From assembly GCF_900095795.1 (NCBI RefSeq), contig NZ_LT608328.1:2659001-2723000 (forward strand): a stretch of DNA of 64,000 nucleotides, read 5' to 3'. Shown here in pieces: positions 27,759 through 60,834 of this stretch; position 1 is the first letter of the stretch, and the number at the start of each line of letters is the position of its first letter. Source of the DNA: Petrimonas mucosa. Its GTDB lineage: Bacteria; Bacteroidota; Bacteroidia; Bacteroidales; Dysgonomonadaceae. A model generated the notes under the pieces. It was not told the DNA's origin and ran no database searches. It was given only the letters and a program-made list of their open reading frames with translations. The position numbers and the translations under genes are program-made.

Positions 27759-27765
27759 TAAGTTT

Positions 27766-29568: not shown

Positions 29569-29588
29569 ATTCAATAATTCTGAAAACA

Positions 29589-36749: not shown

Positions 36750-37287
36750 ATGAAAAAGACAATTCCAGTAAATATTGGGAGAAGGCTCATGTTCTTTTTT
36801 TTGTGTTTGTATTCTTTCGGAATATTCGCACAGAACGTCGATGTTACAGGTTATGTAACCGATGCAAAGAATGAGCCTCTCATCGGGGTAACCTTGAAAG
36901 TTATCGGCGAAAGCGAGAAAGGAACGGTAACTGATTTCGACGGGAAATTTATCCTTACGAATGTTCCGTCAAACGCAAAGATCGAAGTATCTTATGTAGG
37001 CATGCAGAAGCAGGTGATCGAGCTCAAGGGTAGAAAAACGATAAATATCGTCATGAGCGAAGATACCGAGCTTCTGGATGAAGTTGTAGTTGTTGCTTAC
37101 GGTGTACAGAAGAAAGTTTCCGTAACAGGTGCAATTTCCACCGTCAGCACAAAGGATTTAAGGGTCTCCACTTCTCCCAGCCTTGCAAACGCACTTGCTG
37201 GCCGTATCGCCGGTCTTACCTCAATGCAACGTGTTGGAGGACAACCGGGGGTGGACGATGCCACAATGTACCTACGCGGGGCAAGTA
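36750..37287 (+). pseudogene. SusC-like receptor 3, N-terminal part, split by IS256-type element
   Basis: 179 residues of a canonical SusC: signal peptide (MFFFLCLYSFGIFAQ), carboxypeptidase-D-like domain (DVTGYVTDAKNEPLIGVTLK), TonB box DEVVVVAYG (110-118) and the start of the plug. It is interrupted after MYLRGAS. Removing the IS and one target copy rejoins it with 38770-41408 into one frame of 1058 residues. As it stands the reading frame ends a few bases into the IS, so no receptor is made. Confidence 0.9.
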
Positions 37288-37372
37288 GGTAGTGTTACAT
37301 TTAGTGTGTCTCTAGTCTATTGCTTTATCAGTCTTATAACAAATTTATTTCTTTTTTTTAATTTCACCTAAT

Positions 37373-37479
37373 CCATGACATGTATTTTTTAATTCCGATA
37401 CTTGCACAAGGATTACATGCGCAGCATGCAACTTGCTTGTCCTTGTGCAAGTAAGAGGAATTAAGGACCTTTGTCATGG
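37373..37479. repeat. Nested hairpin inside the IS256-type element
   Basis: Four nested stems: CCATGACA/TGTCATGG, TTAATTCC/GGAATTAA, ACTTGCACAAGGA/TCCTTGTGCAAGT (13 bp) and CATGC/GCATG. It lies just downstream of the transposase stop on the minus strand. It is not followed by a T-run on that strand, so it is not an ordinary intrinsic terminator. Confidence 0.6.
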
Positions 37480-37496
37480 GTTGGCGGGAAATACCT

Positions 37497-38657: not shown

Positions 38658-38761
38658 AGTCTTTGAATTTTATTGTTTGTTATGGTTATTTGCAAAACTA
38701 ATAAAGTTTTTAGACTATGTTCTTTTTTTACAGGTACAGACACACTTTTTGGAACAGTATC

Positions 38762-41408: not shown

Positions 41409-41437
41409 ATTTGTTAACAAGATAAATTGGAGATATA

Positions 41438-43336
41438 ATGATGAAGAATAACAAGATAATCAAAATCGGAGGTATGGCGCTTCTGCTATCGCTATTTCTC
41501 TTTTCATGCAGTGATGTGCTGGATCAGGCCCCCGATGGAAAAATATCGCTTGCCGATGTTTTTAATGATGATGAAAAGACAGCAGCATACCTTAACAGCT
41601 GTTACCTTTACATCCCTGCAGAGGGACATACCTACTTCTTCTGGATGCGCGGACCTGTAGACTGGAGTGACGAAGCGTGGGATACCGACGCCGAAGCCGA
41701 GTCGTGGATCACATCGGGTCTGCTCTATAATGGAAACGTATCGGCTGCGTCGCACTTCAATACCAGTTGGGCCGAAAACGGAAACGGCAACTACTGGGTG
41801 CGGATGTGGACAGGCATACGGAAATGTACTGTCTTCCTCGACAATATCGAGACCGCGAAAGTTAAGGACGAGAATAACCGTTCGAGATGGAAAGCGGAGG
41901 CTCACCTGTTACGGGCCTATTACTACATGTTCCTGCTCAAATTCTTCGGATGCCCGCTCCCGATTGAACGGACTGCATACTCCTACACCGATGATTTCTC
42001 CACCACTGAACGCAGCTCATACTACGATGTGGTGAAATTCATCATCGAAGACTGCGATGCGGCTCTTGCTAGCCCCCATCTCCCTTGGCGAATCACCTCT
42101 AATGCCGAAGGATACCGGTTTACAAAAGCTGTTGCTGAAGCAATCAAATCGAGAATGTCACTCTATGCGGCCAGCCCGCTTTACAACGATGGCCAGAACC
42201 ATTGGGAAGAAGCTTACCAGATCAGCAAAAACGCACTGGAGAATTTAAAAAAGAACGGTTACGAACTGTACGACAAGGTCAACTTCCCATCGTGGAAAGA
42301 CAACCCGGATGTTCATCTGCCCAACGATGCAGCCAAGCTGTTCAATGAATATTTCTGCAACAACATGGGCTTTGAAACCAATCCGACCGACAAAGAGACC
42401 ATCTATCAGACCAGTGCCGGCCAGGACTGGATCAACACCGAGGGTATCGGTGCCGTAATGGGCTACAAATCGGGATCGTGCCCCTCACAGGAGATTGTGG
42501 ACTGCTTTGAGACCGTTGACGGCCAGCCTATCCTTGATCTTGCCAAACCGTATGTAGATGAGGTGACACACCTGCAACCCAACTACAACCCGGCAAATAC
42601 GCTGTATGATCCGCAGGATCCATATGCAAACAGGGATCCCCGCTTCTATGCATCGATCTATTATAACGGATCGAAACGGACCTGCTTCTGGATTTTCGAT
42701 GAGACGTCAGAAAGCGTGGAGAATTACCCGGCTAATAAGGGATATCGCACCCGTATCATTGCCACCTGGGCAGGCGAACCCCAGACCGGCAGACATCCGA
42801 CCACACGTAAAGCTACCCGTACGGGCTACTTCCTCCGCAAATTCCTGCATCCCAATTCAGGACAGGAAGTGGTTACTGCCGCACACGCCAAGGCCAAAGT
42901 GATGCGCCTGGGTGAGATCTACCTCAATCTGGCAGAAGCCGCTGCAGAGGCCAACCACCTGGAAGAGGCCTACGAAGCTGTAAATACAATCCGCCGCAGG
43001 GTTGACATGCCACCGCTTCCCGCCGGTCTTTCGAAAGAGCAACTGGTTCTCCGTATCCGCAACGAACGCAGGGTGGAGCTGGCTTTCGAGGCACACCGCT
43101 ATTTTGATGTACGCCGCTGGCACAAGCCGGACGAGACACTCGAAACGACAGACCGCTGGATTACTGCAGCTTATGTGACCCGTAACTTGGATGGCTCTTA
43201 TACCTACAATCGGGGCCCCGTCTCGAAGGAGCGCTTATGCTATCAAAATAAGTTTTTAAAATTCCCGATTCCGCTGAATGATGTCAATATCATGCTGGCA
43301 CTCACCGGTGAAAACTGGCAAAATCCGGGTTGGTAA
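41438..43336 (+). CDS. SusD-like lipoprotein 3 (canonical)
   Basis: A 632-residue surface lipoprotein (ALLLSLFLFSCSDVLDQAPDG). The SusD fold is complete, with RWKAEAHLLRAYYYMFLLKFFG, WEEAYQISKNALENLKKNGYELY and the C-terminal LVLRIRNERRVELAFEAHRYF block ending NPGW. Paralogue of SusD1 (about half identical by eye over the N-terminal region), with no inserted domain. Its SusC partner is split by an IS256-type element. Start ATG at 41438, or 41441 (MM). It would bind glycan over a SusC pore. Confidence 0.92.
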   Translation: MMKNNKIIKIGGMALLLSLFLFSCSDVLDQAPDGKISLADVFNDDEKTAAYLNSCYLYIPAEGHTYFFWMRGPVDWSDEAWDTDAEAESWITSGLLYNGNVSAASHFNTSWAENGNGNYWVRMWTGIRKCTVFLDNIETAKVKDENNRSRWKAEAHLLRAYYYMFLLKFFGCPLPIERTAYSYTDDFSTTERSSYYDVVKFIIEDCDAALASPHLPWRITSNAEGYRFTKAVAEAIKSRMSLYAASPLYNDGQNHWEEAYQISKNALENLKKNGYELYDKVNFPSWKDNPDVHLPNDAAKLFNEYFCNNMGFETNPTDKETIYQTSAGQDWINTEGIGAVMGYKSGSCPSQEIVDCFETVDGQPILDLAKPYVDEVTHLQPNYNPANTLYDPQDPYANRDPRFYASIYYNGSKRTCFWIFDETSESVENYPANKGYRTRIIATWAGEPQTGRHPTTRKATRTGYFLRKFLHPNSGQEVVTAAHAKAKVMRLGEIYLNLAEAAAEANHLEEAYEAVNTIRRRVDMPPLPAGLSKEQLVLRIRNERRVELAFEAHRYFDVRRWHKPDETLETTDRWITAAYVTRNLDGSYTYNRGPVSKERLCYQNKFLKFPIPLNDVNIMLALTGENWQNPGW

Positions 43337-43368: not shown

Positions 43369-46300
43369 ATGAATAATTATAATAAAAAAATTCTTTGGTC
43401 GTTCACCTGTTTACTGCTATGGGTCTTCTCGCTGAATGCCCAGGTAAGAGGGACGGTTAAAGATGGATATGGCCGTATCCTTCAAGGAGTCTTGATTGTC
43501 TCTGAGAATGAAAAGAACATTACCATTACAGACAAGAACGGAAATTACGACCTCACGGTCAACGACGAGAGCGGGTACATCACATACTCCCTGGAGGGTT
43601 ATATCTCACATCGTGTTGACTTAACCGAGGCTATCTTCGAGGAGAAGACTGATGTTACCCTTGAGAGGGCAGAGACTTTCGATCTCGATGAGCAGGTCTT
43701 TACCGGCAATTACAAGCAGAACAAGGAGAAGGTTACAGGATCGATCTCACGTGTAACGGGAAAGGAACTGGAACGTTCACCGGTAGGAAGCTTGTCGATG
43801 TCGCTGGCAGGTAGGTTGCCGGGACTTTTCACCCGCGAAACCTATTCCGAACCGGCACGTACAAATACCGAACTTTGGGTCAGGGGGTCAACCTCTCCCA
43901 ACGGCGGTACAGCATTGGTTGTAATCGACGGCTTCCCCTACGATTATAACGCAAATCAGCTTTTTGAATACATCACTGCCAATGAAGTGGAATCGATAAG
44001 CGTCCTGAAAGATGCTTCAGCACAGGCGCTCTACGGAATTCAGGGAGCTAACGGGGTAATCGTGATCACCACCAAAAGGGGGATCAAGCAGCCACTGAAG
44101 ATTGATGTGACTGTCAATCATACCCTGGAGCAGCGCACCACTACTCCTTCCCATATCAATTCGGCCGACTTTGTACAGTTACGCAACCAGGCCGGATTCA
44201 ACGATGGTAACGGTGAATACTCCTATTTCAGCAAAACAACAGTGGAGGGCTTCCTTGCTGGGGACAATCCGCAATATTTCCCCAATAACAACTGGCGGGA
44301 GATGAACGCCAAGGACATTACCCAGATGAGTCGCCTCAACATGAACCTCACCGGAGGTAACGACAAGGCTGTCTTCTATACCAACGTCAATGTGTTGAAC
44401 CAGGACGGCATGTGGAAGGTGGATCCGGGAACCACACAGTATAACCCCAATAACCAGTTCATCTGGGCCAACATCCGCTCCAATGTTGATGTGCAACTGG
44501 CAAAATACCTCTCAGTGGGGTTGAACCTGAGCGGTAACATCAAACGGGAAAGGACTCCGGGTGGTCATGGCGTGGAACTGGCACACGGCGGAAGCTGGGA
44601 CGGTTTCGCAAACAAAATATGGTACCGCTTCTACTCATTGCCACCCTACGTATACGGACCGACCACCCCACTGGTACAAGATCCTGAGACTGGAGAGATC
44701 AGCGGAGGCGACGTGGTGATTACGGAGACCGAACCGGTTACATCGTGGGCCCTGATCAACAGACTGGGTTATGACCAATATACGGTTACCAACATCTATG
44801 CACAGTTCATGCCGAAACTGGACCTCAGTTTCATTACTCCTGGACTCAGCATCAGCGGCAGCTACGGTTATCAGACAAATGCCGTGAAAGGGCTGTTTGT
44901 AAACCGGACCTACGAAGGCTGGGTTCGCACAAGGGATTATAGCGAGCTGGAGTTCCAGAAAATCGGCACCCAGGTTAACTCACCGCTGCAATACAGATCC
45001 AGCGCAAGTTTCTATTACAACCTGAACTACAAAGGGACTCTCAACTACCAGCGCCGTTTCAACGGTGTACACGATATCAACGCAATGGCATACAGCTTCT
45101 ATCAGCACCTGAACAAGGCGGGTGGTGGTCTGCCCTATAAACGGTCAAACTCGGGGATCGGTGTTGGCTACGGATATGACGATCGCTATCTCGTAAGGGT
45201 TGATCTCGGTTATTCCGGTTCAGAGCAGTATTCACGTAATAACCGCTTTACCGCCTTCCCGGCTCTCTCTGCCGGATGGGTTGCCACCAACGAGGAGTTT
45301 CTTGAAGAAAATCAGCTATTGACCTATCTGAAACTGAGGGGATCATGGGGAAAAACCGGTAACGACCGGGGGATCGGACGTTATGTCTACCTCGACAACG
45401 TCACCCTGACCGGTGGTGGCTTAGGCTTCCTCGGGGGACACAACGTGAACGAGGGACAGGTGGCCAATCCATTTCTGGATCCCGAAATCATCACCAAGAA
45501 AAACCTCGGTATCGATCTCTCACTGCTGAACAACTTCACACTTACAGTTGACATCTACAATGAAAGGACAGAAAATGGTGTGACCAGCGCAACTTCAAAA
45601 ACACCCGAATACCAGGGTGTTCCCCTGGGCAACTACCCCAGAGCGAATGTGGGTATCTTTGAAAACAAGGGTTACGAAATCTCGCTGGGGTACAACAAGG
45701 ATATCACCCGCGATCTCAACCTCACCTTGGGTGGATGGTTGGCACAAAACAAGAACAAGGTGATCTTCTGGGATGAAAGCCAGAGAGTCGAGGATTTTGC
45801 CTACCGCATCCGCACCGAAGGATATCCTCTTGGACAGGCCTGGGGTTACATCGTTGATGATCACAACGGCAACGGCTACTTCAATAGCCAGGAAGAGATC
45901 GACAACAGTGGGCTGGTATATGAGATCGGCACACCCAGACCGGGATACCTGAAATATTACGACCTGAATGCAGACGGCAAAATCAATGACAAGGACAAGG
46001 CTCCGCTTGGAAACGGTTCAATGCCACAGTTCTTCTACGCGTTCAATGGCGGACTGAAGTACAAGAACTTCGACATGAGCGTACTCTTCCAGGGTATTGC
46101 CGACTACTGGACGGTAGATATGTCGATGGGACGTGTTGAATATTCGTTTGAGGGTGTCTACTCGGAGTGGCATAAGAACGCCTGGACCGCTGAGAGGTAT
46201 GCCAACGGCGAAAAGATTACCTATCCGGCATTGTCGGCACAAAAGAATTCAAACCACGAAGCGAGCAACTTCTTCCTTGAGGATAAATCTTACCTCCGGC

Positions 46301-46491
46301 TGAAGAATCTGGAGATCGGTTATACTTTTGATCTGTTTAACGGCACGAGGCTCTATTTCAGCGGACAGAACCTGATTACCTGGGATAAGCTGAAACATGA
46401 TCTCTATGGTCCTGAAGCGCACTATGCAGGCAGTTTGGAAGCTGTTCCCGTCTACCGTCTCTACAATGTTGGACTCAGTATTAAATTTTAA
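43369..46491 (+). CDS. SusC-like TonB-dependent receptor 4 (divergent)
   Basis: A 1040-residue receptor with a signal peptide (ILWSFTCLLLWVFSLNAQ), an N-terminal carboxypeptidase-D-like domain (VRGTVKDGYGRILQGVLIV), plug (VVIDGFPYDYNANQLFEYI, ESISVLKDASAQALYGIQGA) and beta-barrel ending YNVGLSIKF. Like SusC2 it lacks the EEVVVVGYG TonB box; that position reads DEQVFTGNYKQNKEKVTG (107-124). SusC2 and SusC4 form a subgroup distinct from SusC1 and SusC3. It is followed after 3 nt by its SusD, susD4. Confidence 0.9.
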   Translation: MNNYNKKILWSFTCLLLWVFSLNAQVRGTVKDGYGRILQGVLIVSENEKNITITDKNGNYDLTVNDESGYITYSLEGYISHRVDLTEAIFEEKTDVTLERAETFDLDEQVFTGNYKQNKEKVTGSISRVTGKELERSPVGSLSMSLAGRLPGLFTRETYSEPARTNTELWVRGSTSPNGGTALVVIDGFPYDYNANQLFEYITANEVESISVLKDASAQALYGIQGANGVIVITTKRGIKQPLKIDVTVNHTLEQRTTTPSHINSADFVQLRNQAGFNDGNGEYSYFSKTTVEGFLAGDNPQYFPNNNWREMNAKDITQMSRLNMNLTGGNDKAVFYTNVNVLNQDGMWKVDPGTTQYNPNNQFIWANIRSNVDVQLAKYLSVGLNLSGNIKRERTPGGHGVELAHGGSWDGFANKIWYRFYSLPPYVYGPTTPLVQDPETGEISGGDVVITETEPVTSWALINRLGYDQYTVTNIYAQFMPKLDLSFITPGLSISGSYGYQTNAVKGLFVNRTYEGWVRTRDYSELEFQKIGTQVNSPLQYRSSASFYYNLNYKGTLNYQRRFNGVHDINAMAYSFYQHLNKAGGGLPYKRSNSGIGVGYGYDDRYLVRVDLGYSGSEQYSRNNRFTAFPALSAGWVATNEEFLEENQLLTYLKLRGSWGKTGNDRGIGRYVYLDNVTLTGGGLGFLGGHNVNEGQVANPFLDPEIITKKNLGIDLSLLNNFTLTVDIYNERTENGVTSATSKTPEYQGVPLGNYPRANVGIFENKGYEISLGYNKDITRDLNLTLGGWLAQNKNKVIFWDESQRVEDFAYRIRTEGYPLGQAWGYIVDDHNGNGYFNSQEEIDNSGLVYEIGTPRPGYLKYYDLNADGKINDKDKAPLGNGSMPQFFYAFNGGLKYKNFDMSVLFQGIADYWTVDMSMGRVEYSFEGVYSEWHKNAWTAERYANGEKITYPALSAQKNSNHEASNFFLEDKSYLRLKNLEIGYTFDLFNGTRLYFSGQNLITWDKLKHDLYGPEAHYAGSLEAVPVYRLYNVGLSIKF

Positions 46492-46494: not shown

Positions 46495-48738
46495 ATGAAA
46501 GTAATGAAAACATATATCCAGATATTGTTTATCTTATTGGCGCTGGGATTCGCCACCTCCTGCAATGAGGCGCTGGAGCTGGAATACGACGGGCGCACCT
46601 CGCTGGATGAACTATTCAAGACGCGAAACGGAGTAAGGGGATACCTCAACTCCTGCTACGGAGCCAGGATCATGCCCGATATCAACCGGGCGACCCTTAC
46701 CGACGAATCTCAAAGTTCGGACATGCTTTTTCAGGGATCACATGCTGCCCTCTGGTACGTGGATGCATTCAACGCATCCAACTACTCGAATGTGGATGGT
46801 CAACCCTGGGGTTCCATCTACCAGGCGATACGTCGCTGCAACATCTTTCTCAACAGGATCGAAGGGGTCACCGCAAACGAACTGGCCTCCCTCGAAGAGG
46901 AACTCTCCTCCTGGAGGGCACAGGCTCATACCCTGAGAGCACTCTATTACCTGCAGTTGATGAAACGTTACGGGTCTGTTCCCTTGATCACCGAACCCTA
47001 CGAAATCAATCACGATTTCTCGAAAGATCTCCGCGCACCGGTTTCGGCTGTAGTAAAACAGATTCTTGACGACTGCGATGCAGCAATGAGCGAACCCGTT
47101 TCAACCCTCAGCTTCTCCTGGACAGTCAGGACCGGGGAGAACTTTATCATGAACAGGGCGGTTGTCCAGGCTATTCGCTCGCAAGCCATTCTTTACGCTG
47201 CCAGCCCGCTCTATGCCGATGGCACCTACACATGGCAGGATGCCGCAGAAATCACCGGCAACGCACTCTCCAACCTGCTGGTTAACGATTACAAACTCTG
47301 GACCGAGGAACCGGAGAACAACAGCGCACAGAACCTGTATGAACTCTATTTTATCACCCCGCACGATGAACAGCGTGCCCGTGACAAGGAGACCATCTAT
47401 CCCGGCAACAGGGTAAACATCTGGGGAAACCACGGTATGCCCTCTACCCCGGGACAGACAACAGCCGGCGCTTGTCCGACACAGGAGCTGGTAGACTGCT
47501 ATGAAATGCAGGCCACCGGCATGCTTCCTATCTCGGGCTATTCAGATCAGCAACACCTGCAACCCATCATCAATACGGCGTCGGGGTATGATCCGAACAA
47601 TCCCTACGAAGGACGTGATCCCCGTTTCTATGCAACCATCTATTTCAATGGAGCTGTTCGGGATCTCGGACCCTCCGGAGGTTTGGCCAGGGACGACCAC
47701 TATCCGTTGAGCATATCGCTGGCAGGCGGCAGCCATAGTATCGATGCAACCGAACTTGAAGAGGAGGGCGCATTCAGGCTTGAGACAACGGGAGGAGATC
47801 CCTATATCCCAACCACCCCGCTCACCCAGGACATCAACGCCACTACCGGCTCGATTCTGCTCAAATTCAAGTACAAGAGCAACAACAACATCACCAATGC
47901 CCAGTTCTTCTTTGCTGCTCCTAACCCTGCAGGTGGAGAGTCGACACCGGAAAACGTGGTGCTGAACAAAGCAACTGAATGGACCGACTTTGAACTGGAT
48001 CTCACCCCCTACAGGAACAATAGCTGGTGGAAATGGGGAAAACCTGGGCACTACCTCCGTTTTGACGTGGGTGCAGATGCTGGAAATATCGTAGAGATTA
48101 AAGATATCGAGATCAATGTAAGGGTCGAGTCAGTTCCTGCAGATCCCTGCGAAAGCTTTGTAGGCGGCGTGGACGGCATCTCCAACACTAACCGGAGAGC
48201 AACCTTCACCGGATACTATCTCCGCAAATATAATAACTGGAAATCGGGTCGCGATAACGATGCAGATGGCGAAATCCGCATGTTCCGCCTTGCAGAGATG
48301 TACCTCAACTTTGCTGAAGCAGCATATCAGGCTACCGGTAATCCGGAAACGGCAATCAATATTGGAAACGGTATAACGATGAGCGCCCGTGATGCAGTAA
48401 ACGCCATCCGTCGCAGGGTAGGAATGCCCGACATACCGGCAGGATTGTCAAAAGATGAATTCGAGAAACGTTACAGGAATGAACGCCGTGTGGAACTTGC
48501 CTACGAAGGTCACCGCTATTTCGATGTCCGCAGGTGGAAAATCATGGAGCAGAGTGAACGTTACGTGACCGGCATGCGCATCACCAAAAACGATGATGGT
48601 AGTTTCAACTATGAGCGTATCGGTTTCGAACGCGAATCTTATAAGGAAAAAATGTACTTCTATCCGATCCCGCAAAGTGAAATCGACAAGATGTTTACTC
48701 ACACAGGTATGGATTGGCAGAACCCCGGATGGAATTAA
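46495..48738 (+). CDS. SusD-like lipoprotein 4 with inserted beta-sandwich domain
   Basis: A 747-residue surface lipoprotein (LLALGFATSCNEALELEYDG). The SusD core is complete (SWRAQAHTLRALYYLQLMKRYG, the C-terminal FEKRYRNERRVELAYEGHRYF block, ending NPGWN). An insert at about residues 402-548 carries LETTGGDPYIPT, LLKFKYKSNNNITNAQFFFA, EWTDFELDLTPY and YLRFDVGADAGNIVEIKDIEI, matching the inserts in SusD2 and the N-terminus of the protein at 56724. It probably binds a feature of the target glycan. ATG at 46504 is an alternative start. Confidence 0.9.
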   Translation: MKVMKTYIQILFILLALGFATSCNEALELEYDGRTSLDELFKTRNGVRGYLNSCYGARIMPDINRATLTDESQSSDMLFQGSHAALWYVDAFNASNYSNVDGQPWGSIYQAIRRCNIFLNRIEGVTANELASLEEELSSWRAQAHTLRALYYLQLMKRYGSVPLITEPYEINHDFSKDLRAPVSAVVKQILDDCDAAMSEPVSTLSFSWTVRTGENFIMNRAVVQAIRSQAILYAASPLYADGTYTWQDAAEITGNALSNLLVNDYKLWTEEPENNSAQNLYELYFITPHDEQRARDKETIYPGNRVNIWGNHGMPSTPGQTTAGACPTQELVDCYEMQATGMLPISGYSDQQHLQPIINTASGYDPNNPYEGRDPRFYATIYFNGAVRDLGPSGGLARDDHYPLSISLAGGSHSIDATELEEEGAFRLETTGGDPYIPTTPLTQDINATTGSILLKFKYKSNNNITNAQFFFAAPNPAGGESTPENVVLNKATEWTDFELDLTPYRNNSWWKWGKPGHYLRFDVGADAGNIVEIKDIEINVRVESVPADPCESFVGGVDGISNTNRRATFTGYYLRKYNNWKSGRDNDADGEIRMFRLAEMYLNFAEAAYQATGNPETAINIGNGITMSARDAVNAIRRRVGMPDIPAGLSKDEFEKRYRNERRVELAYEGHRYFDVRRWKIMEQSERYVTGMRITKNDDGSFNYERIGFERESYKEKMYFYPIPQSEIDKMFTHTGMDWQNPGWN

Positions 48739-51336: not shown

Positions 51337-53310
51337 ATGCGCATACATTTGACACCACTCCTCTCCGTTCTGATCGGTATCGCTTCATTTTTCCCGGTAA
51401 ACGGACAGGATAAGTTCACCGCCCTACCCTACGGATCACTCTCAATTGGAGGAGAAGTAGGTGAGAAAATCGACCTCTGCATCGAGAACAGGGTAATGGC
51501 ACAGGATATCGGACGCCTCATCCTCCCCTTCCAGCTCAGAAACGACGAGAATTGGGGGTTCAGGTGCGAATTCTGGGGGAAATGGGTTACATCGGCCATG
51601 CTCGGATATGGATATAAACCTGTGCCGCCATATCGGGAGATTATCGACAACGCGGTAAACGGGTTGCTACTCACACAGACTGCAGATGGATATATTGGCA
51701 CATATCCCGATCAGCACCATTTGAAAGATTGGGACATTTGGGGCCGTAAATATGTGCTGCTGGGACTATTGGCCTATTACGACCAGATTGGCGACCCGGC
51801 AACACTTGAAGCTGCGGAACGGGTGGCGGATCACCTGATAGGCGAGGCCGGTCCCGGCAGCAGTGTAAATCTGGCAGAAACCGGGTGGATCGGGTGGAAA
51901 GGACTCGCCTCCAGCTCGGTACTGGAGCCGATTGCCCTGCTTTACCAGAGAACCGGCAAACAGAAATATCTCGACCTTGCCGAACATATCGTACAACTCT
52001 GGAAAAGTCCCAACAAGCTGACACCGACAGGCATCAGGCTTGTGGATGAAGCAGTTGCAGAGACCCCGCTCTGGGAGATGGCCGGCGCACCCAAGGCATA
52101 TGAGATGATGTCGTGCTTCGAAGGTCTCTGCGAGCTCTATCGGATCACCGGAAACCAAGACTACCTCAAAGCAACCCGGCAGCTGGTCAAATCGATTATC
52201 CGCGACGAGATCATGCTGGTGGGTTCGGGCTCCCTGCATGAGATCTGGTGCAATGGGAAGATGCGTCAGAACGACCCGATGTATCAGGGTCTGGAGACCT
52301 GTGTCACCGTAACCTGGATGAAACTTCTCTACCAGATGTTGCGTCTCACCGGTGACAGCATGTATGCCGATCAGCTAGAAATCAGTCTCTACAATGCACT
52401 TTTGGCATCCCAGACACCGGATGGCGAGTGGTGGTCATACTACACCGGACTGATGGGAGAAAGGGTGCCCAGTCACCTCCAGTTTGCAGATGTCGTGATG
52501 AGCTGTTGCGTGGCCAACGGTCCCAGGGCAATGTTGCTGACACCTTCATGGGCCGTCATGAGATCGGAAAACGGATTTGCGGTAAACCTCTATGCTCCCA
52601 TGCAAGGCAAGATGCAGTCGCCCGGCAATCAACCCTTCACCCTAGAGATGTCGACCCGCTATCCGGTTGGTGGCAATGTGGCAATCACCCTCTCCATCCC
52701 GAAGAAGGAGCGCTTTGATATCCGCCTTCGCATTCCCGAATGGAGCAAAAAAACGGTGGTTACAGTCAACGGTGAACGTTACCGGAAGAAAGTCTCCCCG
52801 GGAAGCTATCTGACCCTCAAGCGGGAATGGTGCAACCGGGACAAGATTGAGGTGAGCTTCGACATGACCGGCTATGTGGTGAATGCACCGTCAGGGGTTC
52901 CGGATGCGGCAATCCGGCGCGGTCCGGTGATACTGGCATCCGATACCCGGCTGATACCGTTTCGTCATGGGGTGGAGGTTCCGCCAATGTATCGTTACAG
53001 CTTCAGGAAAAACCGGGATGGCTCGATCGATCTCACACTGGTCGATAATCCCCCGGTGAAAGAGATATGGATGACATTCCAGGTGCCGGTAACGGATGAA
53101 AGCGGGAAGCAGCACGAGTTGCCCATGTGCGACTACGCCTCAGCCGGAAACAGCTGGAAAGCGGGCAACCTGTTCAGGGTATGGCTCCCTCAACCTTTCG
53201 ACTTCCGTCACCTCTATATCAATAATCTCGACTGGAGGATAAATGTCACAGATAACGGACCACGTCCCGAGATACCTGAAATTTATAAAAAACAGAACAA
53301 TGAAGAGTGA
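51337..53310 (+). CDS. PF07944/GH127-like beta-L-arabinofuranosidase (copy 1)
   Basis: A 657-residue exported protein (LLSVLIGIASFFPVNGQ signal). An (alpha/alpha)6 barrel contains GWIGWKGLASSSVLEPI, KAYEMMSCFEGLCELYR and the zinc-cysteine site of GH127: Glu320 and Cys322 in GLETCVTVTW and the Cys390-Cys391 pair in MSCCVANGP. A C-terminal beta-sandwich has FDIRLRIPEWSKKTVV. In GH127 one cysteine of the pair is the nucleophile. Related families (GH146 and others) share the site, so the exact substrate is open. Its last 11 nt overlap the next gene. Confidence 0.85.
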   Translation: MRIHLTPLLSVLIGIASFFPVNGQDKFTALPYGSLSIGGEVGEKIDLCIENRVMAQDIGRLILPFQLRNDENWGFRCEFWGKWVTSAMLGYGYKPVPPYREIIDNAVNGLLLTQTADGYIGTYPDQHHLKDWDIWGRKYVLLGLLAYYDQIGDPATLEAAERVADHLIGEAGPGSSVNLAETGWIGWKGLASSSVLEPIALLYQRTGKQKYLDLAEHIVQLWKSPNKLTPTGIRLVDEAVAETPLWEMAGAPKAYEMMSCFEGLCELYRITGNQDYLKATRQLVKSIIRDEIMLVGSGSLHEIWCNGKMRQNDPMYQGLETCVTVTWMKLLYQMLRLTGDSMYADQLEISLYNALLASQTPDGEWWSYYTGLMGERVPSHLQFADVVMSCCVANGPRAMLLTPSWAVMRSENGFAVNLYAPMQGKMQSPGNQPFTLEMSTRYPVGGNVAITLSIPKKERFDIRLRIPEWSKKTVVTVNGERYRKKVSPGSYLTLKREWCNRDKIEVSFDMTGYVVNAPSGVPDAAIRRGPVILASDTRLIPFRHGVEVPPMYRYSFRKNRDGSIDLTLVDNPPVKEIWMTFQVPVTDESGKQHELPMCDYASAGNSWKAGNLFRVWLPQPFDFRHLYINNLDWRINVTDNGPRPEIPEIYKKQNNEE

Positions 53311-56300
53311 CAGAAGAACATTTATCAAGAAATGGAGTATCGCCTCCCTGGGCCTGGCCACTGCCATCCGGAGCGATCTGCATGGCATGCCCTTGAACAG
53401 CAGTCCAACCTCAGCTATCGAGCCGGAGATTGAACCGCTACCTTCGGGTCAGTTGCACGCACGCCTTACCGACCATGGTGAAGCTTTGATCAACCCCGGA
53501 ATGGGATGGGTGACCTATTACTATTCAAATCTGTACCAGAATTACGGTTCAAAGTTGGAACCCTCCGATACGGTCCGCTACTTTCCCGGAATGAACACCG
53601 TCTTTCTTCGTATACCCTGGGCATTCGTGGAGCCGGAAGAGGGACAGTATGTATGGGAAATCCTGGACACCCCCGCCCAACGATGGATTGAACAGGGTGG
53701 CCAGGTGGGAATCTGCATCACCGCGACTGAAAACTGGATGGGATCGGGAACCCCTAAATGGATCTACGATGCGGGGGCCAAGTCATACGAAGTGGATGGA
53801 TATCTTGAGCCGGACTACGACGATCCGATCTTTCTGGAAAAGGTGGAGAATTTCGTCCGGGTACTGGCTGCCAGATATGACAACAATCCCAACGTGGCCT
53901 ACCTGTTTGTGGGTCATTACGGAATGTGGGGCGAAGGCCATACCGTATTGACCACACCCAAACATGGCAAATCGTGGGGAGTGGAGACACAGAAAAGGAT
54001 GATCGACCTCTACCGCAGGCACTTCAAGCACACCACGCTCTGCATATCGGATGATTATGCGGGACATGACCAGCGAGGAGAACGTTTCCCGATCACGGAC
54101 TACGCCTTTTCACAGGGAGTGACCATACATGACGACAGCATTCTGGTACAACCACCTCCAAACAGTTGGTTTCACAGCGAAATGGCACAGCTCTTCTGGC
54201 CCACTCTTCCGGTGGTCCTGGAACATGAGCACTATGGAGGATCGGTCGAAAGGGGAGCTTGGGACAACGATCTGCTCATGAAAGCGGTAGAGGATTATCA
54301 CGCTTCGTTCCTCTCGATCCACTGGTGGCCCGATCGTTTTTACGAAGCAAACAAGGAGATCATCCGACGGATAAACAGGCGTATCGGCTACCGCCTGCAG
54401 GTACCGGAAATCACCTGGCCCCGAACCGTAAGAAAAGGGGAAAAGTTTACCATCAAGAGCAGGTGGGCCAACGCCGGGGTTGCACCATGCTACGGGGGTG
54501 GTTATCCCTGTTTCACCCTTAAGGATGAGAAGGGCGGAATCGTATCGGTTCTTACCGACTCTTCCTGCAACCTGAAGGAGCTCCCCGTAAGTGAGGCCGA
54601 CAACCTGAAGAGCAGGGAGATCACCTCCACCTTCACCATTGCACCTGCTCACCGGGATCACAAGGGAACATTTTTCCGCACATGCAAGCCCGGAACCTAC
54701 GACCTGTATCTGTCGGCCGGCAAACTCGACGGGACCCCCATCTATGAACTGCCATATGGCAATCACGACGGGCACAGGCGTTATAAGATAGGGAGAATTG
54801 TTTTATTGGATTACGCCTCCCGTATGAAAGCAGACAGCCAGATACCTGTTGAATGCAGGCATAGATTGCTCTCTATTGTCACCATGTGCCTCTGCATGCT
54901 ATCTGTTTATGCCGGCAGGCCAGCACAGCTCCACTGCCTGGGAAACGGAAACTACTGTGTATTCGGCCAGGGAGCAGACATTGAGAGCATATTCGGGCCG
55001 GGATACAGTTCACCCTCATACATCCGGCTGATCGTGCAGGATATGGACTCCACCAGCAGTTCACGGATACCGGGAACTGCTATCTGGGAGCATACGCTCT
55101 ACAAGGGAGGGGAGATTGTGGCGAGATTCAAGGATTTCATCGACAGCAAATCGGCAATCTATACCCGGATGGTGGAGTGCCTCAAGCCTTTTGCCATCAA
55201 TATCCATATAGAGGAAAGCGACAGGATCACCCTCCACCACACCTCATCCCTGCTGCTCTACAAAGGGAGGGGATTACCCTTTTACGGTGATTATAATCAT
55301 CCATATGAGCAATTTCAAAATATCTGCTCAACGGGTAACAGTGAACTGAATCAGGTTGAACCCGATCTCTTCTCGCTCAGTTTCAAACCGGGAAAAAGCG
55401 AACTCTACTGCATTGGTGGAGCCTCATTTCAGGAGTGTGACGAGAACAGCCGCCTGGCATTGACAGCCACGGCTCCATTCCTGCTGGAGAGAACCAAAAA
55501 ATATTGGGAGAACTATACAAACCGACGAAAGGCATTCGAGAAGCTCATTCCGGAGAGCTTCCCCATGAGGCGGAAGGTGCTCGACCAGATCGACAACGTG
55601 GCCATTATCTTGAAGACCCAACAGGCTACCCAGGGAGCGGTGATTGCCGGACACCGCTACCACCTGGGATATGTAAGGGACCAGTACGGTGTCTCAAGGG
55701 GATTCCTGGCGATGGGATATTTTGAGGAAGCCCGGAAAATTCTGCAATTCTACTGGGATATCTGGCAACATTTCGGATATATCCGCAACGCCCAGGCTAT
55801 TGGAATTCCCGGCATCTTCCACCAGCATGAAAATGACGAGGTTGAAATTACCGGATACCTGATCATTCAAGCTTTCGACTACTTGAACAACACAAACGAT
55901 GTCGCTTTTACAAGGGAGATCCTCCCCATGTTGGAGTGGGCCTGGCAGGCGCAAAAAAGACACCTGATCAAAGGGATGTTGCCCTTCAACGGAGATGAGA
56001 CCTACGTGGCCGGTGGGATATTGCCCCGAAGTGCACTGAACGACGGTTCTGCCGAAGCGACTCTCCTTTTCATCGAATCGGGGAAAAAGCTCCTCTCCTT
56101 CGTGGAGAAGTACGGGTTATGGAACAGTTCAACCATCCTATCCGACAGGAGACTACTCCATCAGACCGAGAGAGCTTATCTGCAGAACTTCGTATCCGGC
56201 AGACAAATTATGGCCAACAACCCTTTGCGGATGGATATTGAATCGATGCCTGAATACCGTCATGGCTTCTGCGCCGGATCACACGGCGTGTTGGAGACCA

Positions 56301-56746
56301 GAAAGGATAGCGGAGGCAATTACCTCTGTCCCAAATGTATCGCCGAGGGGTTAACCCTCCCGGTGATCGAGCGGAAAAGCTATTTCCTCCCCTCGCTGGC
56401 GCTGACCCCACTCTATCTGCGTTCTACCGTGATCCCCCGGAAGATTCTGGATCACAACCTGGCACTTATCATTGACAATTACAAGAGGAAAGGAGAGGTC
56501 TCCTCGCGCGAAGGATCCGCCATAACCATCGGATACGAGTATGGCTTCTTTCTCTACGCGCTGAGCAGGTACAAGGAGCCGCTTGCAGCAAGGATTCTTG
56601 CCGACATGCTCTCCATCGTGGATGAAACCGGAGCCTGGGTGGAATATTATAACAACGGGGTCCCCATGGGTTGTAACTACAGGCCTTGGGAAAGTGCAAT
56701 CAATATAGAAGCCATCATCTCGTATGCAACAAGCTATAACAAATAG
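53300..56746 (+). CDS. Probable fusion: Tat-exported DUF4832-like glycosidase plus six-hairpin hydrolase
   Basis: An 1148-residue open frame. Start ATG 53300 gives a Tat signal (SDRRTFIKKWSIASLGLATA). Residues about 50-500 resemble DUF4832/DUF4874-type TIM-barrel proteins (ALINPGMGWVTYYYSN, FLRIPWAFVEPEEGQYVW, VLEHEHYGG) with a C-terminal sandwich ending HRRYKIGRIVLLD. Then comes an in-frame Met509 (ATG 54824) followed by a signal-peptide-like stretch LLSIVTMCLCMLSVYAG. Residues 540-1148 resemble an (alpha/alpha)6 GH15-like hydrolase (HLGYVRDQYGVSRGFLAMGY, GIFHQHENDEVEITGY). Two separate genes joined by a lost stop codon is my favoured reading; a true fusion with an internal membrane segment is the alternative. 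Confidence 0.7.
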   Translation: MKSDRRTFIKKWSIASLGLATAIRSDLHGMPLNSSPTSAIEPEIEPLPSGQLHARLTDHGEALINPGMGWVTYYYSNLYQNYGSKLEPSDTVRYFPGMNTVFLRIPWAFVEPEEGQYVWEILDTPAQRWIEQGGQVGICITATENWMGSGTPKWIYDAGAKSYEVDGYLEPDYDDPIFLEKVENFVRVLAARYDNNPNVAYLFVGHYGMWGEGHTVLTTPKHGKSWGVETQKRMIDLYRRHFKHTTLCISDDYAGHDQRGERFPITDYAFSQGVTIHDDSILVQPPPNSWFHSEMAQLFWPTLPVVLEHEHYGGSVERGAWDNDLLMKAVEDYHASFLSIHWWPDRFYEANKEIIRRINRRIGYRLQVPEITWPRTVRKGEKFTIKSRWANAGVAPCYGGGYPCFTLKDEKGGIVSVLTDSSCNLKELPVSEADNLKSREITSTFTIAPAHRDHKGTFFRTCKPGTYDLYLSAGKLDGTPIYELPYGNHDGHRRYKIGRIVLLDYASRMKADSQIPVECRHRLLSIVTMCLCMLSVYAGRPAQLHCLGNGNYCVFGQGADIESIFGPGYSSPSYIRLIVQDMDSTSSSRIPGTAIWEHTLYKGGEIVARFKDFIDSKSAIYTRMVECLKPFAINIHIEESDRITLHHTSSLLLYKGRGLPFYGDYNHPYEQFQNICSTGNSELNQVEPDLFSLSFKPGKSELYCIGGASFQECDENSRLALTATAPFLLERTKKYWENYTNRRKAFEKLIPESFPMRRKVLDQIDNVAIILKTQQATQGAVIAGHRYHLGYVRDQYGVSRGFLAMGYFEEARKILQFYWDIWQHFGYIRNAQAIGIPGIFHQHENDEVEITGYLIIQAFDYLNNTNDVAFTREILPMLEWAWQAQKRHLIKGMLPFNGDETYVAGGILPRSALNDGSAEATLLFIESGKKLLSFVEKYGLWNSSTILSDRRLLHQTERAYLQNFVSGRQIMANNPLRMDIESMPEYRHGFCAGSHGVLETRKDSGGNYLCPKCIAEGLTLPVIERKSYFLPSLALTPLYLRSTVIPRKILDHNLALIIDNYKRKGEVSSREGSAITIGYEYGFFLYALSRYKEPLAARILADMLSIVDETGAWVEYYNNGVPMGCNYRPWESAINIEAIISYATSYNK

Positions 56747-58901
56747 ACGAAATCGTGCACTTGGAAGATGCCGGCTCTACATGGCCGTGCTGATCATTTC
56801 ATCCGGTATCTTCCAGGCTTGTCAGAAGGAGGAAGGGAAAACAGGAGCGCCGATAATTGTCAAATCAAACACCCAATACCTGAAGTTTAACCTTGCATCG
56901 GCAAACCAGCTGACCATCAGCAAGGATGACAAAAATGGCTACTCGATCACCACTACAGGCGGTGATCCCTATATCATGACCGAGGAGATATCAAAGGCGA
57001 GGCACGCAGATTCCGTGGTGCTCTCTTTTGAATACAAAAGCTCAAAAGATATCGACCGGCTACAGGTTTTCTTTGGCCCCGACATTGCAGAATCGCGTTC
57101 TCTCTTTGGCCCATTGCTGAGTGCCTCCTCCGGATGGAGAACCTATTCGTTGATCATGCCAAAAGAGTTGGAAAAATTCTCCTGGGGAAAAGCGGGTGAT
57201 ATTCTCCGGTTTGATTTTGGCACCGAGAGTGGCGTGAATCTGGCTATCAGAAACATCTACTTCAGAAAGATGAATGCCTTGGAACTCCATGCGTTTGAGG
57301 AGGAGGAGGCTCGCATCAGGCAGGAAGAGTCGATCCAGCGCGCATGGGAGGAGTACTTGGCGAAAGATTACGCATCGAAGATTAGCGAAGTGAAGATTGA
57401 TGCCACAACGGTGACCATCACGGGCGAATACAATGGTGACGGAGCGTTCAGCTTGTGCGAGGTGGTGCCAATGGACACGTTGGTTGCCATGAAGAGTTTC
57501 AGAGAGAGAACACCCCTGGATAGCCGCTCCTTCCAGGTCACGCTACCCAGGTTCGTCACCCGTAACGGATTGAATTACGACCGATTGCTATCCAGGTGGG
57601 TGATCGTCAAGGAGGGCGGAAACGGCCTCTTAATTGATTCTCATGCCCGGTATCCAGATCTCATTGCCGCCCAACAATCGATGCCTCCGGGAGTGTTAAA
57701 GAGCAAAAAGGGGTTGGGAGGCTTTTTCATGAACAGTTTCGCAAGCGACTTGGACCTCCTCGGCATCACCAGCATCACCATCAATATTCCCATAACCGCA
57801 ATGATGTACACCTATCCGGCAGCAAATACAATCGAGCATGAGTATGGGGGCAGGAGGTACTACTTCTCGAGAAACTACCTCAATGGCATCGATGAAGCAT
57901 TGAGACTGACAGCCTCCAGAGAGATTGTGGTTGCGGCAATTATCCTGATACAGAAAGCGGCCGAGTGTGTGGATCCGGAAATTGGCAGGCTGCTACAGCA
58001 TCCCGCATATACCCCGGAAGGAATCTATACAATGCCCAACCTGACAACCGATCGGGGAGTCAACTGTTACGCCGCGGCGCTCGATTTCCTTGCGTCCCGT
58101 TACAACAGGCCCGACAACGGTAACGGGAGAATACACAAATGGATCATGCACAATGAGGTGGACGCCGGTCTCACCTGGACCAACATGGGACGGAAGCCAA
58201 TGATGATTTACCTGGAGAGCTACCTCAGCTCCATGCGGATCTGCCATGCCGTCACCCGGCAATATGATCCCCACAGTGAAGTGATGGGGTCGTTCACCCA
58301 TTCGTGGTCAGAGCCGGTGGAGCTCTACTCCTCCAAGGAGATGCTGACAGCCATGCAAAAGTTCAGTATCAGGGAGGGGGACTTTCAATGGGGTGTGGCC
58401 TACCATCCCTATCCGCAAGACCTGAACGAACCCAAAACATGGAACGATACAAGAGCCACATTCAGCATCAACACTCCCCTGGTCACCTTCAAGAATCTCG
58501 AAGTAATCGACTACTGGATCCGAAAAAATGAAAACCGTTACCTCTCAAGCCAGAAAAGAACATTGTGGCTCTCCGAGAACGGAACCAACTCCAGGAGCTA
58601 CAGCAACAAGGATCTGATGGAGCAGGCTGCCGGTTTTGCCTATGCCTGGAAAAAGTTGTCTCTCCTGGAGGGAATCGATGCCATACAATGGCACAACTGG
58701 ATCGATAACCGGACAGAATTCGGTTTGAGAATTGGCTTACGACGCTTTCCAGATGACGAGACGGAGCCGGGAGGTGTCAAGCCGGTCTGGTACGCCTACC
58801 AGGCTGCCGGCACGGAGAGGGAAGATGAGGTTTTCGAGCCCTACAGATCAATCATCGGTATCCGGCAATGGAATGAAATCATGCACAATGTCATACCCTA
58901 A
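56724..58901 (+). CDS. DUF5722-like TIM-barrel glycosidase with N-terminal SusD-insert domain, lipoprotein
   Basis: A 725-residue lipoprotein. ATG 56724 (overlapping the preceding gene by 23 nt) gives a basic n-region before LIISSGIFQAC (Cys33). Residues about 47-183 form the same beta-sandwich found inserted in SusD2 and SusD4 (SITTTGGDPYIM, LSFEYKSSKDIDRLQVFFG, LRFDFGTESGVNLAIRNIYF). The C-terminal part has LLIDSHARYPDLI and a TIM-barrel with candidate acid/base Glu478 (MHNEVDAG) and nucleophile Glu618 (LSENGTNS), as in retaining clan-A enzymes. The DUF5722 assignment is from memory, and activity is unknown. The shared domain ties it to the import system. Confidence 0.72.
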   Translation: MQQAITNRRNRALGRCRLYMAVLIISSGIFQACQKEEGKTGAPIIVKSNTQYLKFNLASANQLTISKDDKNGYSITTTGGDPYIMTEEISKARHADSVVLSFEYKSSKDIDRLQVFFGPDIAESRSLFGPLLSASSGWRTYSLIMPKELEKFSWGKAGDILRFDFGTESGVNLAIRNIYFRKMNALELHAFEEEEARIRQEESIQRAWEEYLAKDYASKISEVKIDATTVTITGEYNGDGAFSLCEVVPMDTLVAMKSFRERTPLDSRSFQVTLPRFVTRNGLNYDRLLSRWVIVKEGGNGLLIDSHARYPDLIAAQQSMPPGVLKSKKGLGGFFMNSFASDLDLLGITSITINIPITAMMYTYPAANTIEHEYGGRRYYFSRNYLNGIDEALRLTASREIVVAAIILIQKAAECVDPEIGRLLQHPAYTPEGIYTMPNLTTDRGVNCYAAALDFLASRYNRPDNGNGRIHKWIMHNEVDAGLTWTNMGRKPMMIYLESYLSSMRICHAVTRQYDPHSEVMGSFTHSWSEPVELYSSKEMLTAMQKFSIREGDFQWGVAYHPYPQDLNEPKTWNDTRATFSINTPLVTFKNLEVIDYWIRKNENRYLSSQKRTLWLSENGTNSRSYSNKDLMEQAAGFAYAWKKLSLLEGIDAIQWHNWIDNRTEFGLRIGLRRFPDDETEPGGVKPVWYAYQAAGTEREDEVFEPYRSIIGIRQWNEIMHNVIP

Positions 58902-58917
58902 ATAACTATCATTACAA

Positions 58918-60834
58918 ATGAAACGAATTTCAAGCATCATCACACTTATCACGGTTGTTTCACTTGCAATCCTTGTTTCGTGCAGTGATCACAAAGAAAA
59001 GGAAGCCGTCCGGGATACAATGTCTCCGCTACCGCCCGGTTCGGCAAGGCTGGAGGGCTTTTTCGAACAGTACATCCAGCACTCCATTAACCATTGGAAC
59101 AAGGGCGATCTGCCTTACGACCAGTTTGTAGACTTCTTCAGAAACGGGCGACCCCAGTTCGCATTGGGCGAGATGTGGGGAAAAGCAGTTCGTTCCGGCA
59201 GCATGTTTTACCGGTATACCAACGACCCTGAGCTTCGTCAGATTCTGGAGACAACCGTCAACGACCTGCTTACCACCCGGAGGGAGAATGGCAGCATCAG
59301 CTGTGTCCCAATTGAAAATCAGCCCGAGGAGAGTGAGTTGTGGGAACGGAAGTATGTAATGTTGGGTCTGGAGGAGTATTACGAGTGGGTAAATCCCGAT
59401 CCTCAAGTCCTTGACGCCCTGATCAGCCAGGCCGACAATATTATCTCCCTGATCGGCCCCTCACCGAAAACTGAAATCACGGACGTGGGATGGAGTGCCA
59501 CCAATATCGGACATGAACCTTGCCACATTGAATCCAGTACCCTGCTGGAACCTTTCATGCGACTCTATAAATGGACCGGGGAGAAACGTTTTCTCGACTT
59601 CGCCGCTTACATCATAGAATCGGGAGGCACAAAAGAGTACAACCTTTTCCAGAATGCCCTGAACAACGTCAATCCCTGGGAAATGGCCGGTCACTACCCC
59701 AAAGCCTACGAAATGATGTCGCTCTTCGAAGGTTTGGCCGAATATTACAGGGTGGTGGGAAAACCGGAACACAAGGAGATGCTGATGAATATGTTCCGGA
59801 ACATCGCATCCAAGGAGATCACCATCATCGGTAACGGGGGATCGGATCAGCCCTATCACCCTTACGTCTATGGTGAGGCATGGGGAAACACTGCACTGGA
59901 GCAGACCAATCCCGACATTACCCGCATGATGGAGACTTGCGTAGGGGTGACCTGGATGAAGTTTTGCAGCCAGTTGCTCCGCCTGACGGGCGATCCTGCC
60001 ATCGCCGGCTACATTGAAAAGTATGCCTATAACGGACTGATTGGTGCGATGAAACCTACAGGCGATGGATTCAGTTACGTCAACCTGCTGAATGGCTCGA
60101 AGGTGACCGATGAGGGTTGGGGTTGGAAATTCGACTCGCTGCAGGTAACCTGTTGCAATCTCAACGGACCGATGGGACTGGCATATATTCCCTACGTGGC
60201 AGTAATGAATTCCGACAGTGGACCGGTTATCAATCTCTATAACAGGGGAGATTTTGTTTTTGAAACTCCCGGCAAGAGATCGGGCTCCATTGCCATCAAC
60301 ACCGACTATCCGGTTTCTGGCAAAATAGAGGTTAAGGTGGCGCTTGACAAGAGTGAAACATTTACAATCCGTTTACGGATTCCGGAATGGAGTCTCGCCA
60401 CAACGCTCACCGTGAACAACGGGCCGGTTGAGGTGACCCCCGGCAGCTATACGGAAATAAGCCGCAAATGGGAATCGGGCGACTCTATCAGGTTGGAGTT
60501 GGATATGAGGTGCAGGGTGATTGACGCACCACGTGGAAGCAATCGCGCTGGCGACAATTTCCAGGCGGTGATCTACGGACCGGTAGTGTTGGCAAGGGAT
60601 GAGCAGATCGACAGCAACTACGACAAACCGGTACGTCTGGCATCGGAGAACGGTTTCATCAATGCAGTCCAGGAGAAGCCTGCTGCCGGCAGAAGCAACC
60701 TGCAGTTCTCGGTACCCTTGGAAGATGGCGGATATATTACCATGACCGACTACGCCTCCGTGGATAACTGGAACAATGGCATGCATATCTGCACATGGCT
60801 TCCGATAAAGGAGGGTGAATCACATGGTAAATAG
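58918..60834 (+). CDS. PF07944/GH127-like hydrolase (copy 2), lipoprotein
   Basis: A 638-residue lipoprotein (VSLAILVSCSDHKEK). Barrel motifs DVGWSATNIGHEPCHIES, NPWEMAGHYPKAYEMMSLFEG split around 252-272, the zinc site Glu339-Cys341 in METCVGVTW and Cys412-Cys413 in VTCCNLNGP, then a C-terminal sandwich (FTIRLRIPEWSLATTL). It keeps the full cysteine-glutamate set of GH127-type enzymes. It differs from copy 1 by its lipid anchor and many loops, so it probably attacks a different linkage. It starts 16 nt after the DUF5722-like gene and its end overlaps the next gene by 11 nt. Confidence 0.84.
   Translation: MKRISSIITLITVVSLAILVSCSDHKEKEAVRDTMSPLPPGSARLEGFFEQYIQHSINHWNKGDLPYDQFVDFFRNGRPQFALGEMWGKAVRSGSMFYRYTNDPELRQILETTVNDLLTTRRENGSISCVPIENQPEESELWERKYVMLGLEEYYEWVNPDPQVLDALISQADNIISLIGPSPKTEITDVGWSATNIGHEPCHIESSTLLEPFMRLYKWTGEKRFLDFAAYIIESGGTKEYNLFQNALNNVNPWEMAGHYPKAYEMMSLFEGLAEYYRVVGKPEHKEMLMNMFRNIASKEITIIGNGGSDQPYHPYVYGEAWGNTALEQTNPDITRMMETCVGVTWMKFCSQLLRLTGDPAIAGYIEKYAYNGLIGAMKPTGDGFSYVNLLNGSKVTDEGWGWKFDSLQVTCCNLNGPMGLAYIPYVAVMNSDSGPVINLYNRGDFVFETPGKRSGSIAINTDYPVSGKIEVKVALDKSETFTIRLRIPEWSLATTLTVNNGPVEVTPGSYTEISRKWESGDSIRLELDMRCRVIDAPRGSNRAGDNFQAVIYGPVVLARDEQIDSNYDKPVRLASENGFINAVQEKPAAGRSNLQFSVPLEDGGYITMTDYASVDNWNNGMHICTWLPIKEGESHGK

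What the first reader, a model, noticed from the sequence alone, without database searches (positions are those of the whole stretch)
56724..57275. One beta-sandwich module is shared by two SusD proteins and a hydrolase
Residues 47-183 of the protein at 56724 match the inserts in SusD2 (33908-34340) and SusD4 (47698-48138). Shared blocks: a TTGGDPYI/TTGSDPWI motif, FEYKSS or KYKSNN followed by an aromatic-rich strand, a W-x-x-[FY]-x-L/I strand and an LRFD-[FVL] block ending in an IRN/IKD strand. Insertion at the same place in two SusD proteins, plus fusion to an enzyme of the same locus, suggests a glycan-binding domain for one substrate feature. I do not recognise it as a named CBM family.
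Basis: partly seen in the sequence, partly recalled or inferred. Interest (0 to 1): 0.75.

Follow-up and report, generated by a model that had tools for sequence, protein, structure and literature searches.

The report
Shared sugar-binding-type module in rhamnose locus
A so far unnamed protein domain with the shape of a sugar-binding module is built both into two sugar-importing surface proteins and into a probable sugar-cutting enzyme of the same gene cluster, which suggests that the bacterium uses one kind of grip at several steps of eating one, probably rhamnose-containing, polysaccharide.

Summary
Residues 47-185 of the protein at 56724 and the inserts of two SusD proteins are homologous (28-32% identity; shuffle Z 21-29); nothing else in the window matches below E 0.2. 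A fourth copy sits 3.4 kb past the window, in a second DUF5722 protein. The fold is predicted confidently (pLDDT 94.7) and 39 of the 50 best PDB fold matches are CBMs by title. Pfam, NCBIfam and PDB sequences hold no family for it; CAZy could not be searched. DUF5722 itself looks like a GH-A glycosidase barrel. The module is detachable: DUF5722 exists without it, and it also occurs in SGBP-like, NAGPA and WbsX-type proteins. Two corrections: SusD insertion fits one ancestral event rather than two, and the module-bearing SusD is the second in a conserved SusC-SusD-SusC-SusD tandem (20 of 21 named loci with room). In the own genome and one distant genome it sits among alpha-L-rhamnosidases. Glycan binding is inferred, not shown.

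The parts
56724..58901 (+). Module + DUF5722 protein (725 aa): lipobox-like FQAC near the N terminus, module, helix, beta-rich region, barrel
   Evidence: ORF; PF18989 E 3.3e-120 at aa 326-719; lipobox read by eye
56862..57278 (+). Module copy in the DUF5722 protein (aa 47-185)
   Evidence: AF2 model of 56841-57293, pLDDT 94.7
57699..58880 (+). DUF5722 region (aa 326-719)
   Evidence: AF2 model of 57291-58898, pLDDT 93.8; fold hits
58155..58157 (+). E478 of HNEVD, invariant in 23 sequences; candidate acid/base (inferred)
58575..58577 (+). E618 of SENG, invariant in 23 sequences; candidate nucleophile (inferred)
32672..34954 (+). SusD2 carrying the module
33908..34340 (+). Module insert in SusD2 (aa 413-556)
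46495..48738 (+). SusD4 carrying the module
47698..48138 (+). Module insert in SusD4 (aa 402-548)
23511..29568 (+). First SusC and plain SusD of tandem 1, with an IS1595-type transposase gene between them
29547..32660 (+). Second SusC of tandem 1, before SusD2
36750..43336 (+). First SusC (split by a transposase gene) and plain SusD of tandem 2
43369..46491 (+). Second SusC of tandem 2, before SusD4
4966..23253 (+). Enzyme block: three GH78, one GH78-like, one GH106, one GH43, one F5/8-GH31-like, one isomerase-like gene
51337..60834 (+). Two GH127 genes flanking the DUF4832/GH42-like gene and the module-DUF5722 gene

Best explanation
The segment is a non-catalytic, CBM-type beta-sandwich of about 135 residues, of a sequence family not found in the libraries searched, that serves several proteins of a probably rhamnose-containing-glycan utilisation locus. 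On the lipoprotein at 56724 it would hold the polysaccharide near a clan GH-A glycosidase domain (DUF5722). In the second SusD of a tandem SusC-SusD-SusC-SusD set it is looped out between two strands and would give the transporter lid an extra binding site for the same or a related glycan. Shown by sequence or model: homology, fold class, detachability, carriers, gene order, co-occurrence with DUF5722. Inferred: surface location, glycan binding, shared ligand, activity of DUF5722, rhamnose-containing substrate.
For: Homology. Fold: pLDDT 94.7; 70 PDB matches at E<=0.001, 39 of the 50 listed titled as CBMs. Carriers of 85 distinct copies in the sequences fetched: 38 DUF5722, 33 SusD, 14 others, one or three in tandem. 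Two DUF5722 proteins lack it. Co-occurrence with DUF5722: 14 genomes both, 7 module only, 1 DUF5722 only, 79 neither of 101 family genomes, Fisher 3e-11, uncorrected for kinship; in a phylum sample of 395 the same two genomes have both. Rhamnosidase linkage: 9 of 12 GH78-domain matches of the genome in the 95 kb that hold all four modules, and 2 of 2 in distant genome G203 inside its module cluster.
Against: No binding data. Structural similarity is at fold level (query TM 0.37-0.60, identity 8-16% in the 50 listed), and 11 of the 50 are not titled as CBMs (MAM domains, Cry1Aa, a tailspike, GH43 and other chains). Four aromatic positions are nearly invariant (F102, Y104, F116, W138) but which are exposed is unknown, and the fully invariant D81, P82, R162, D164 could be structural. 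By similarity to the window's own genes 31 of 45 named loci show no GH78/GH106 and 24 show neither these nor GH127; in G100 no rhamnosidase match lies on the contig of the modules.
Confidence: 0.72

Rival explanations
1. Docking module: copies on enzyme, transporter lid and glycan-binding protein bind each other or a common partner and hold the components together at the cell surface.
For: The same domain sits on components that would work side by side; in L054 it is on the SGBP-like neighbour while the SusD before it lacks it.
Against: DUF5722 carriers occur in Planctomycetota, Lentisphaerota and Hydrogenedentota loci (L089, L069, L065) in which no protein similar to SusD4 was found; three tandem copies on one enzyme; fold hits are mainly CBMs.
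Confidence: 0.12
2. Structural spacer without ligand, placing the enzyme or lid at a distance from the membrane.
For: Position between lipobox and DUF5722 in the enzyme; the invariant residues could be structural.
Against: A spacer does not readily explain insertion between two strands of SusD, a place between Big_2 and NAGPA domains, or the C-terminal place on SGBP-like proteins.
Confidence: 0.1
3. Distant members of a known CAZy CBM family (CBM4/9/16/22, 29, or a recent one such as CBM112) whose profile was not available here.
For: CBM folds are the best structure hits; one of 61 copies matches Pfam CBM_4_9 at E 0.009.
Against: CBM29-2 gives no meaningful profile match; a GH26 insert of CBM112-like architecture gives hhalign probability 0.4%. 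CAZy/dbCAN models could not be run.
Confidence: 0.06

Closest known systems
CBM29 (Piromyces, PDB 1gwk/1gwm)
   Same: Beta-sandwich CBM fold (query TM 0.55-0.60). By eye both have R-x-D in the penultimate strand and I-x-I-[KR]-N in the last; R112 of CBM29-2 contacts ligand (PMC9079177, passages).
   Different: No significant sequence relation (the profile aligns to another strand); counterparts of its binding aromatics were not located; the R-x-D equivalence is inference from strand order.
CBM112 (internal CBM of Bacteroides GH26; PMC13357471: abstract and sections 17, 21, 22, 23 read)
   Same: A CBM inserted inside another protein of a PUL and also on SGBPs and several enzyme classes: the same way of use.
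   Different: A GH26 insert with that architecture (L146; presumed, not shown, to be CBM112) does not match the module; the sections read report mainly beta-mannan loci and name no SusD or DUF5722 carrier.
SusD/RagB glycan-binding lids (PF07980, PF14322)
   Same: Both carriers pass both Pfam cut-offs.
   Different: About 145 extra residues between two strands; the plain SusDs of the same locus lack them.
Clan GH-A glycosidases, e.g. B. cellulosilyticus GH39 (5jvk)
   Same: Barrel-type fold hits; invariant NE and ENG glutamates.
   Different: Query TM 0.28-0.44 only, best target TM 0.65 to a xylanase; no PDB sequence match at E<=1; no activity known from the tools used.

Membership tests
Carbohydrate-binding module (kind) | Discrete non-catalytic domain attached to carbohydrate-active proteins | tested here: met
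   Carriers, and DUF5722 homologues without it
Carbohydrate-binding module (kind) | CBM-type beta-sandwich fold | tested here: met
Carbohydrate-binding module (kind) | Demonstrated carbohydrate binding | not testable with these tools
   needs bench work
CBM29 | Sequence membership | tested here: not met
   hhalign 49.5% over 23 columns in another register; hmmsearch 6.1 and 6.6 bits
CBM112 | Sequence membership, tested by proxy against two GH26 proteins with an interrupted catalytic domain | tested here: inconclusive
   no match of the profile to either, hhalign 0.4% for one insert; founding sequences not available
CBM_4_9 (PF02018) | Pfam match | tested here: not met
   1 of 61 copies at E 0.009; no match in the three window proteins
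Other CAZy CBM families | dbCAN/CAZy profile match | not testable with these tools
   library not held
SusD (PF07980/PF14322) | Both SusD Pfam domains above cut-off | tested here: met
Clan GH-A glycoside hydrolase (DUF5722) | (beta/alpha)8 barrel fold | tested here: met
   193 PDB matches at E<=0.001, the 50 listed being glycosidases by title; TM scores low
Clan GH-A glycoside hydrolase (DUF5722) | Acid/base Glu after strand 4 and nucleophile Glu on strand 7 | tested here: inconclusive
   Invariant E478 and E618 fall at the 4th and 7th barrel strand by my count of the strand list; no coordinates to confirm
Clan GH-A glycoside hydrolase (DUF5722) | Hydrolytic activity | not testable with these tools
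   needs assay

The most novel reading that the evidence does not exclude
One mobile recognition module acts as a locus-wide tag: the same domain on lid, surface binding protein and glycosidase either grips one rhamnose-containing epitope at capture, cleavage and import, or makes modules bind each other so that the enzyme is physically held at the second of two tandem SusCD transporters. A tandem of one plain and one CBM-bearing SusCD pair would then be a two-stage importer.
Probability: 0.2. Interest if true: 0.75.

Novelty: new variant of a known kind. Interest (0 to 1): 0.5.

Why it matters
SusD lids are usually taken to be the glycan-binding part themselves. A CBM-type domain looped out of the lid and also fused to an enzyme of the same locus gives a direct handle on whether capture, cutting and import use a common grip. 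It would give a name to a domain in proteins now annotated only as SusD or DUF5722, points to DUF5722 as a probable GH-A glycosidase of rhamnose-containing glycans, and can be tested with small soluble proteins.

Tried and rejected
Independent double insertion into SusD: disfavoured; the tree needs two changes, compatible with one gain and one loss. Chance similarity: rejected. Membership in CBM29: rejected on sequence. Identity with CBM112: not supported by a proxy insert. PDB sequence searches for the module gave chance-level hits only, for DUF5722 none. Literature: 'DUF5722' in 0 papers; four searches for SusD with an inserted CBM or extra domain, or for new CBM families listed 44 entries (15 of 99), and no listed title or abstract start reports such a SusD; only open-licence PMC papers are held, and I opened parts of three papers. 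A search on the lipoprotein export signal returned 0 papers, so surface exposure rests on recalled knowledge. Three of 308 neighbour proteins (from L088) were left out of the Pfam tallies, whose tables stop at 25 families; neighbour ORFs were picked mechanically and some may not be genes. In one search the query named GH42like was cut out of frame, so its count of 0 is void and is not used.

Full report
Check of the observation. The three segments exist at the stated places and are homologous: 28, 32 and 30% identity, Smith-Waterman scores 21 to 29 standard deviations above 1000 shuffles. Among 796 window ORFs of at least 40 residues the three-row profile gives these three at E below 1e-60 (they built the profile) and nothing else under 0.2; single-copy searches, which are not circular, give E 4e-9 to 5e-17 for the other two. 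The own genome (one contig, 3.72 Mb) has four copies, all within 34 kb; the fourth is in a second DUF5722 protein just past the window.

Fold. An alignment of 61 copies gave an AlphaFold2 model of 56841-57293 with mean pLDDT 94.7, strands apart from short helices. Foldseek against the PDB gives 70 matches at E<=0.001. Of the 50 listed, 39 are CBMs by title (families 29, 86, 11, 6, 35, 4, 16, 27, 30, 8, a hyaluronan-binding module and others) and 11 are not (GH43 chains, MAM domains, a B. thetaiotaomicron surface glycan-binding protein, Cry1Aa, a tailspike and others). TM-scores normalised on the query are 0.37 to 0.60, so this is a fold class and not a family. Only the copy of the DUF5722 protein was modelled; sameness of fold for the SusD copies follows from profile homology (domain E 2e-41 and 2e-40 with the iterated profile, which includes them).

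Family and carriers. Loci came from the named-genome scan (45 loci), the family scan (21 of 101 genomes) and the phylum scan (2 of 395; at most 10 candidates scored per genome). Not every match was fetched. In what was fetched there are 85 distinct copies: 38 before DUF5722, 33 in SusD, 4 in two WbsX-type proteins, 3 in NAGPA phosphodiester-glycosidase proteins, 2 at the C terminus of SGBP-like proteins (BT_3987-like or DUF4959 plus F5/8 type C), 2 in one protein with a module at each end, 2 in short ORFs, 1 in a cut-off ORF. The classes other than DUF5722 and SusD were assigned by hand from a Pfam scan of 10 proteins; L021, L023 and L068 were not scanned and are labelled by likeness or length. 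Loci were found by the module, so carrier frequencies are biased. An independent DUF5722 search gave 22 matches in 15 of 101 family genomes; I looked at two of the shorter ones, L102 and L103, and both go from the signal region straight to DUF5722 without a module. Three tandem modules precede DUF5722 in Neolewinella (L067) and in two proteins of genome G203.

No existing family found. Pfam's best stretches leave the module uncovered in the window proteins; 61 copies scanned alone give five families at E<=0.05, each in one or two copies, among them CBM_4_9 at 0.009 and DUF5114 at 0.004. NCBIfam shows no match over the module. PDB sequences give nothing better than E 0.4. CAZy/dbCAN could not be run. 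CBM29-2, the most frequent fold hit, gives only a 23-column local match in another register. By eye, the invariant R162-x-D164 of the module resembles R112-x-D114 of CBM29-2; R112 hydrogen-bonds ligand according to PMC9079177 (passages). This equivalence is inference.

SusD insertion. The insert stands between the DPRFYASIYYN and ETFVGG strands; the window's two plain SusDs show the empty site. A tree of 59 SusDs with the module removed puts all 33 module-bearing ones together with a single plain one (34 rows, support 95 after midpoint rooting, quick method; the label needs two changes; the program warns that a very long plain row, L066, joins the branch to this group, which may be false). The plain row inside, L054, has the module at the end of the next gene, an SGBP-like protein, which suggests loss from SusD or transfer between neighbours. 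On the tree of modules, DUF5722 and SusD copies need one change between them, but 29 of 82 inner branches are unresolved. Gene order: of 27 named loci with a module-bearing SusD, 21 have 5.5 kb or more upstream; in 20 of these it is preceded by SusC and a plain SusD, and in 17 also by a further SusC (the other three contigs or loci begin too near). In the exception, L071, the second SusC was not detected. Both sets of the window have the full order (counted by eye).

DUF5722. The rest of the protein models at pLDDT 93.8. Foldseek gives 193 matches at E<=0.001, the best a GH39 of B. cellulosilyticus (E 9e-12), then beta-glucuronidases, beta-glucosidases, xylanases, mannanases; query TM is only 0.28-0.44 and superpositions of long chains are poor, target TM up to 0.65 for a xylanase. 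Glutamates of HNEVD and SENG are invariant in 23 sequences and by my count sit at barrel strands 4 and 7 of the strand list, as recalled for clan GH-A. I infer a retaining glycosidase.

Substrate. The window has three GH78, one GH78-like, one GH106, one GH43 and two GH127 genes. I asked for the GH78 domain in six genomes. Own genome: 9 of 12 matches lie in 2.665-2.760 Mb around the modules (two of the nine in one ORF; one of the other three is below the cut-off). G203: both matches lie inside its module cluster. G050, G072 and G024 have one or more matches within about 15 kb of a module or DUF5722 gene besides others elsewhere. G100 has none on the contig of its modules. The same call finds the domain in 5 of 14 control genomes, 2 over cut-off. 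Among 305 of 308 neighbour proteins 17 have the GH78 catalytic domain, at least 8 GH127 and at least 4 GH106; 9 of 69 in the second part of the DUF5722-type set are sulfatases. By similarity to window genes, 14 of 45 named loci have a rhamnosidase and 21 have that or GH127; 31 and 24 do not; some contigs are short. A rhamnose-containing glycan is the best guess.

Co-occurrence. In the family 14 genomes have module and DUF5722 (one of them, G063, only a DUF5722 fragment), 7 module only, 1 DUF5722 only, 79 neither (Fisher 3e-11 on counts taken by hand, not corrected for relatedness). In the phylum sample the same 2 of 395 have both, one of them the window's own genome.

Verdict. It is best called a CBM-like domain of a new sequence family, used as a shared module in a probably rhamnose-glycan locus; binding and shared ligand remain to be shown.

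Noticed in passing
36750-41408: The first SusC of tandem 2 is split: an N-terminal piece, a Mutator-family transposase gene on the minus strand (37497-38657), then the rest. The plain half of this tandem may not work in this strain.
   Followed up: partly
26800-27753 and 35225-36478: Further transposase genes (IS1595-type; one judged by eye only) lie inside the locus.
   Followed up: no
G000:C1:2665322-2759872: A stretch of about 95 kb, reaching well beyond the window, holds 9 of 12 GH78-domain matches of the genome.
   Followed up: partly
L005:1026-2495: 489-aa protein without Pfam match, homologous (29% over 281 columns) to the middle of L061:9719-11656, which carries a module at each end: an unnamed domain of the same loci.
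   Followed up: partly
L054:6378-9745: Here the SusD lacks the module and the next gene, SGBP-like, carries it at its C terminus: loss or transfer between neighbouring genes.
   Followed up: partly
L022, L024, L032: The module sits between Big_2 domains and the matched NAGPA part of phosphodiester-glycosidase proteins.
   Followed up: no
49814-51313: A CotH-kinase-type gene lies two genes after SusD4; homologues occur in 10 of 45 named module loci.
   Followed up: no
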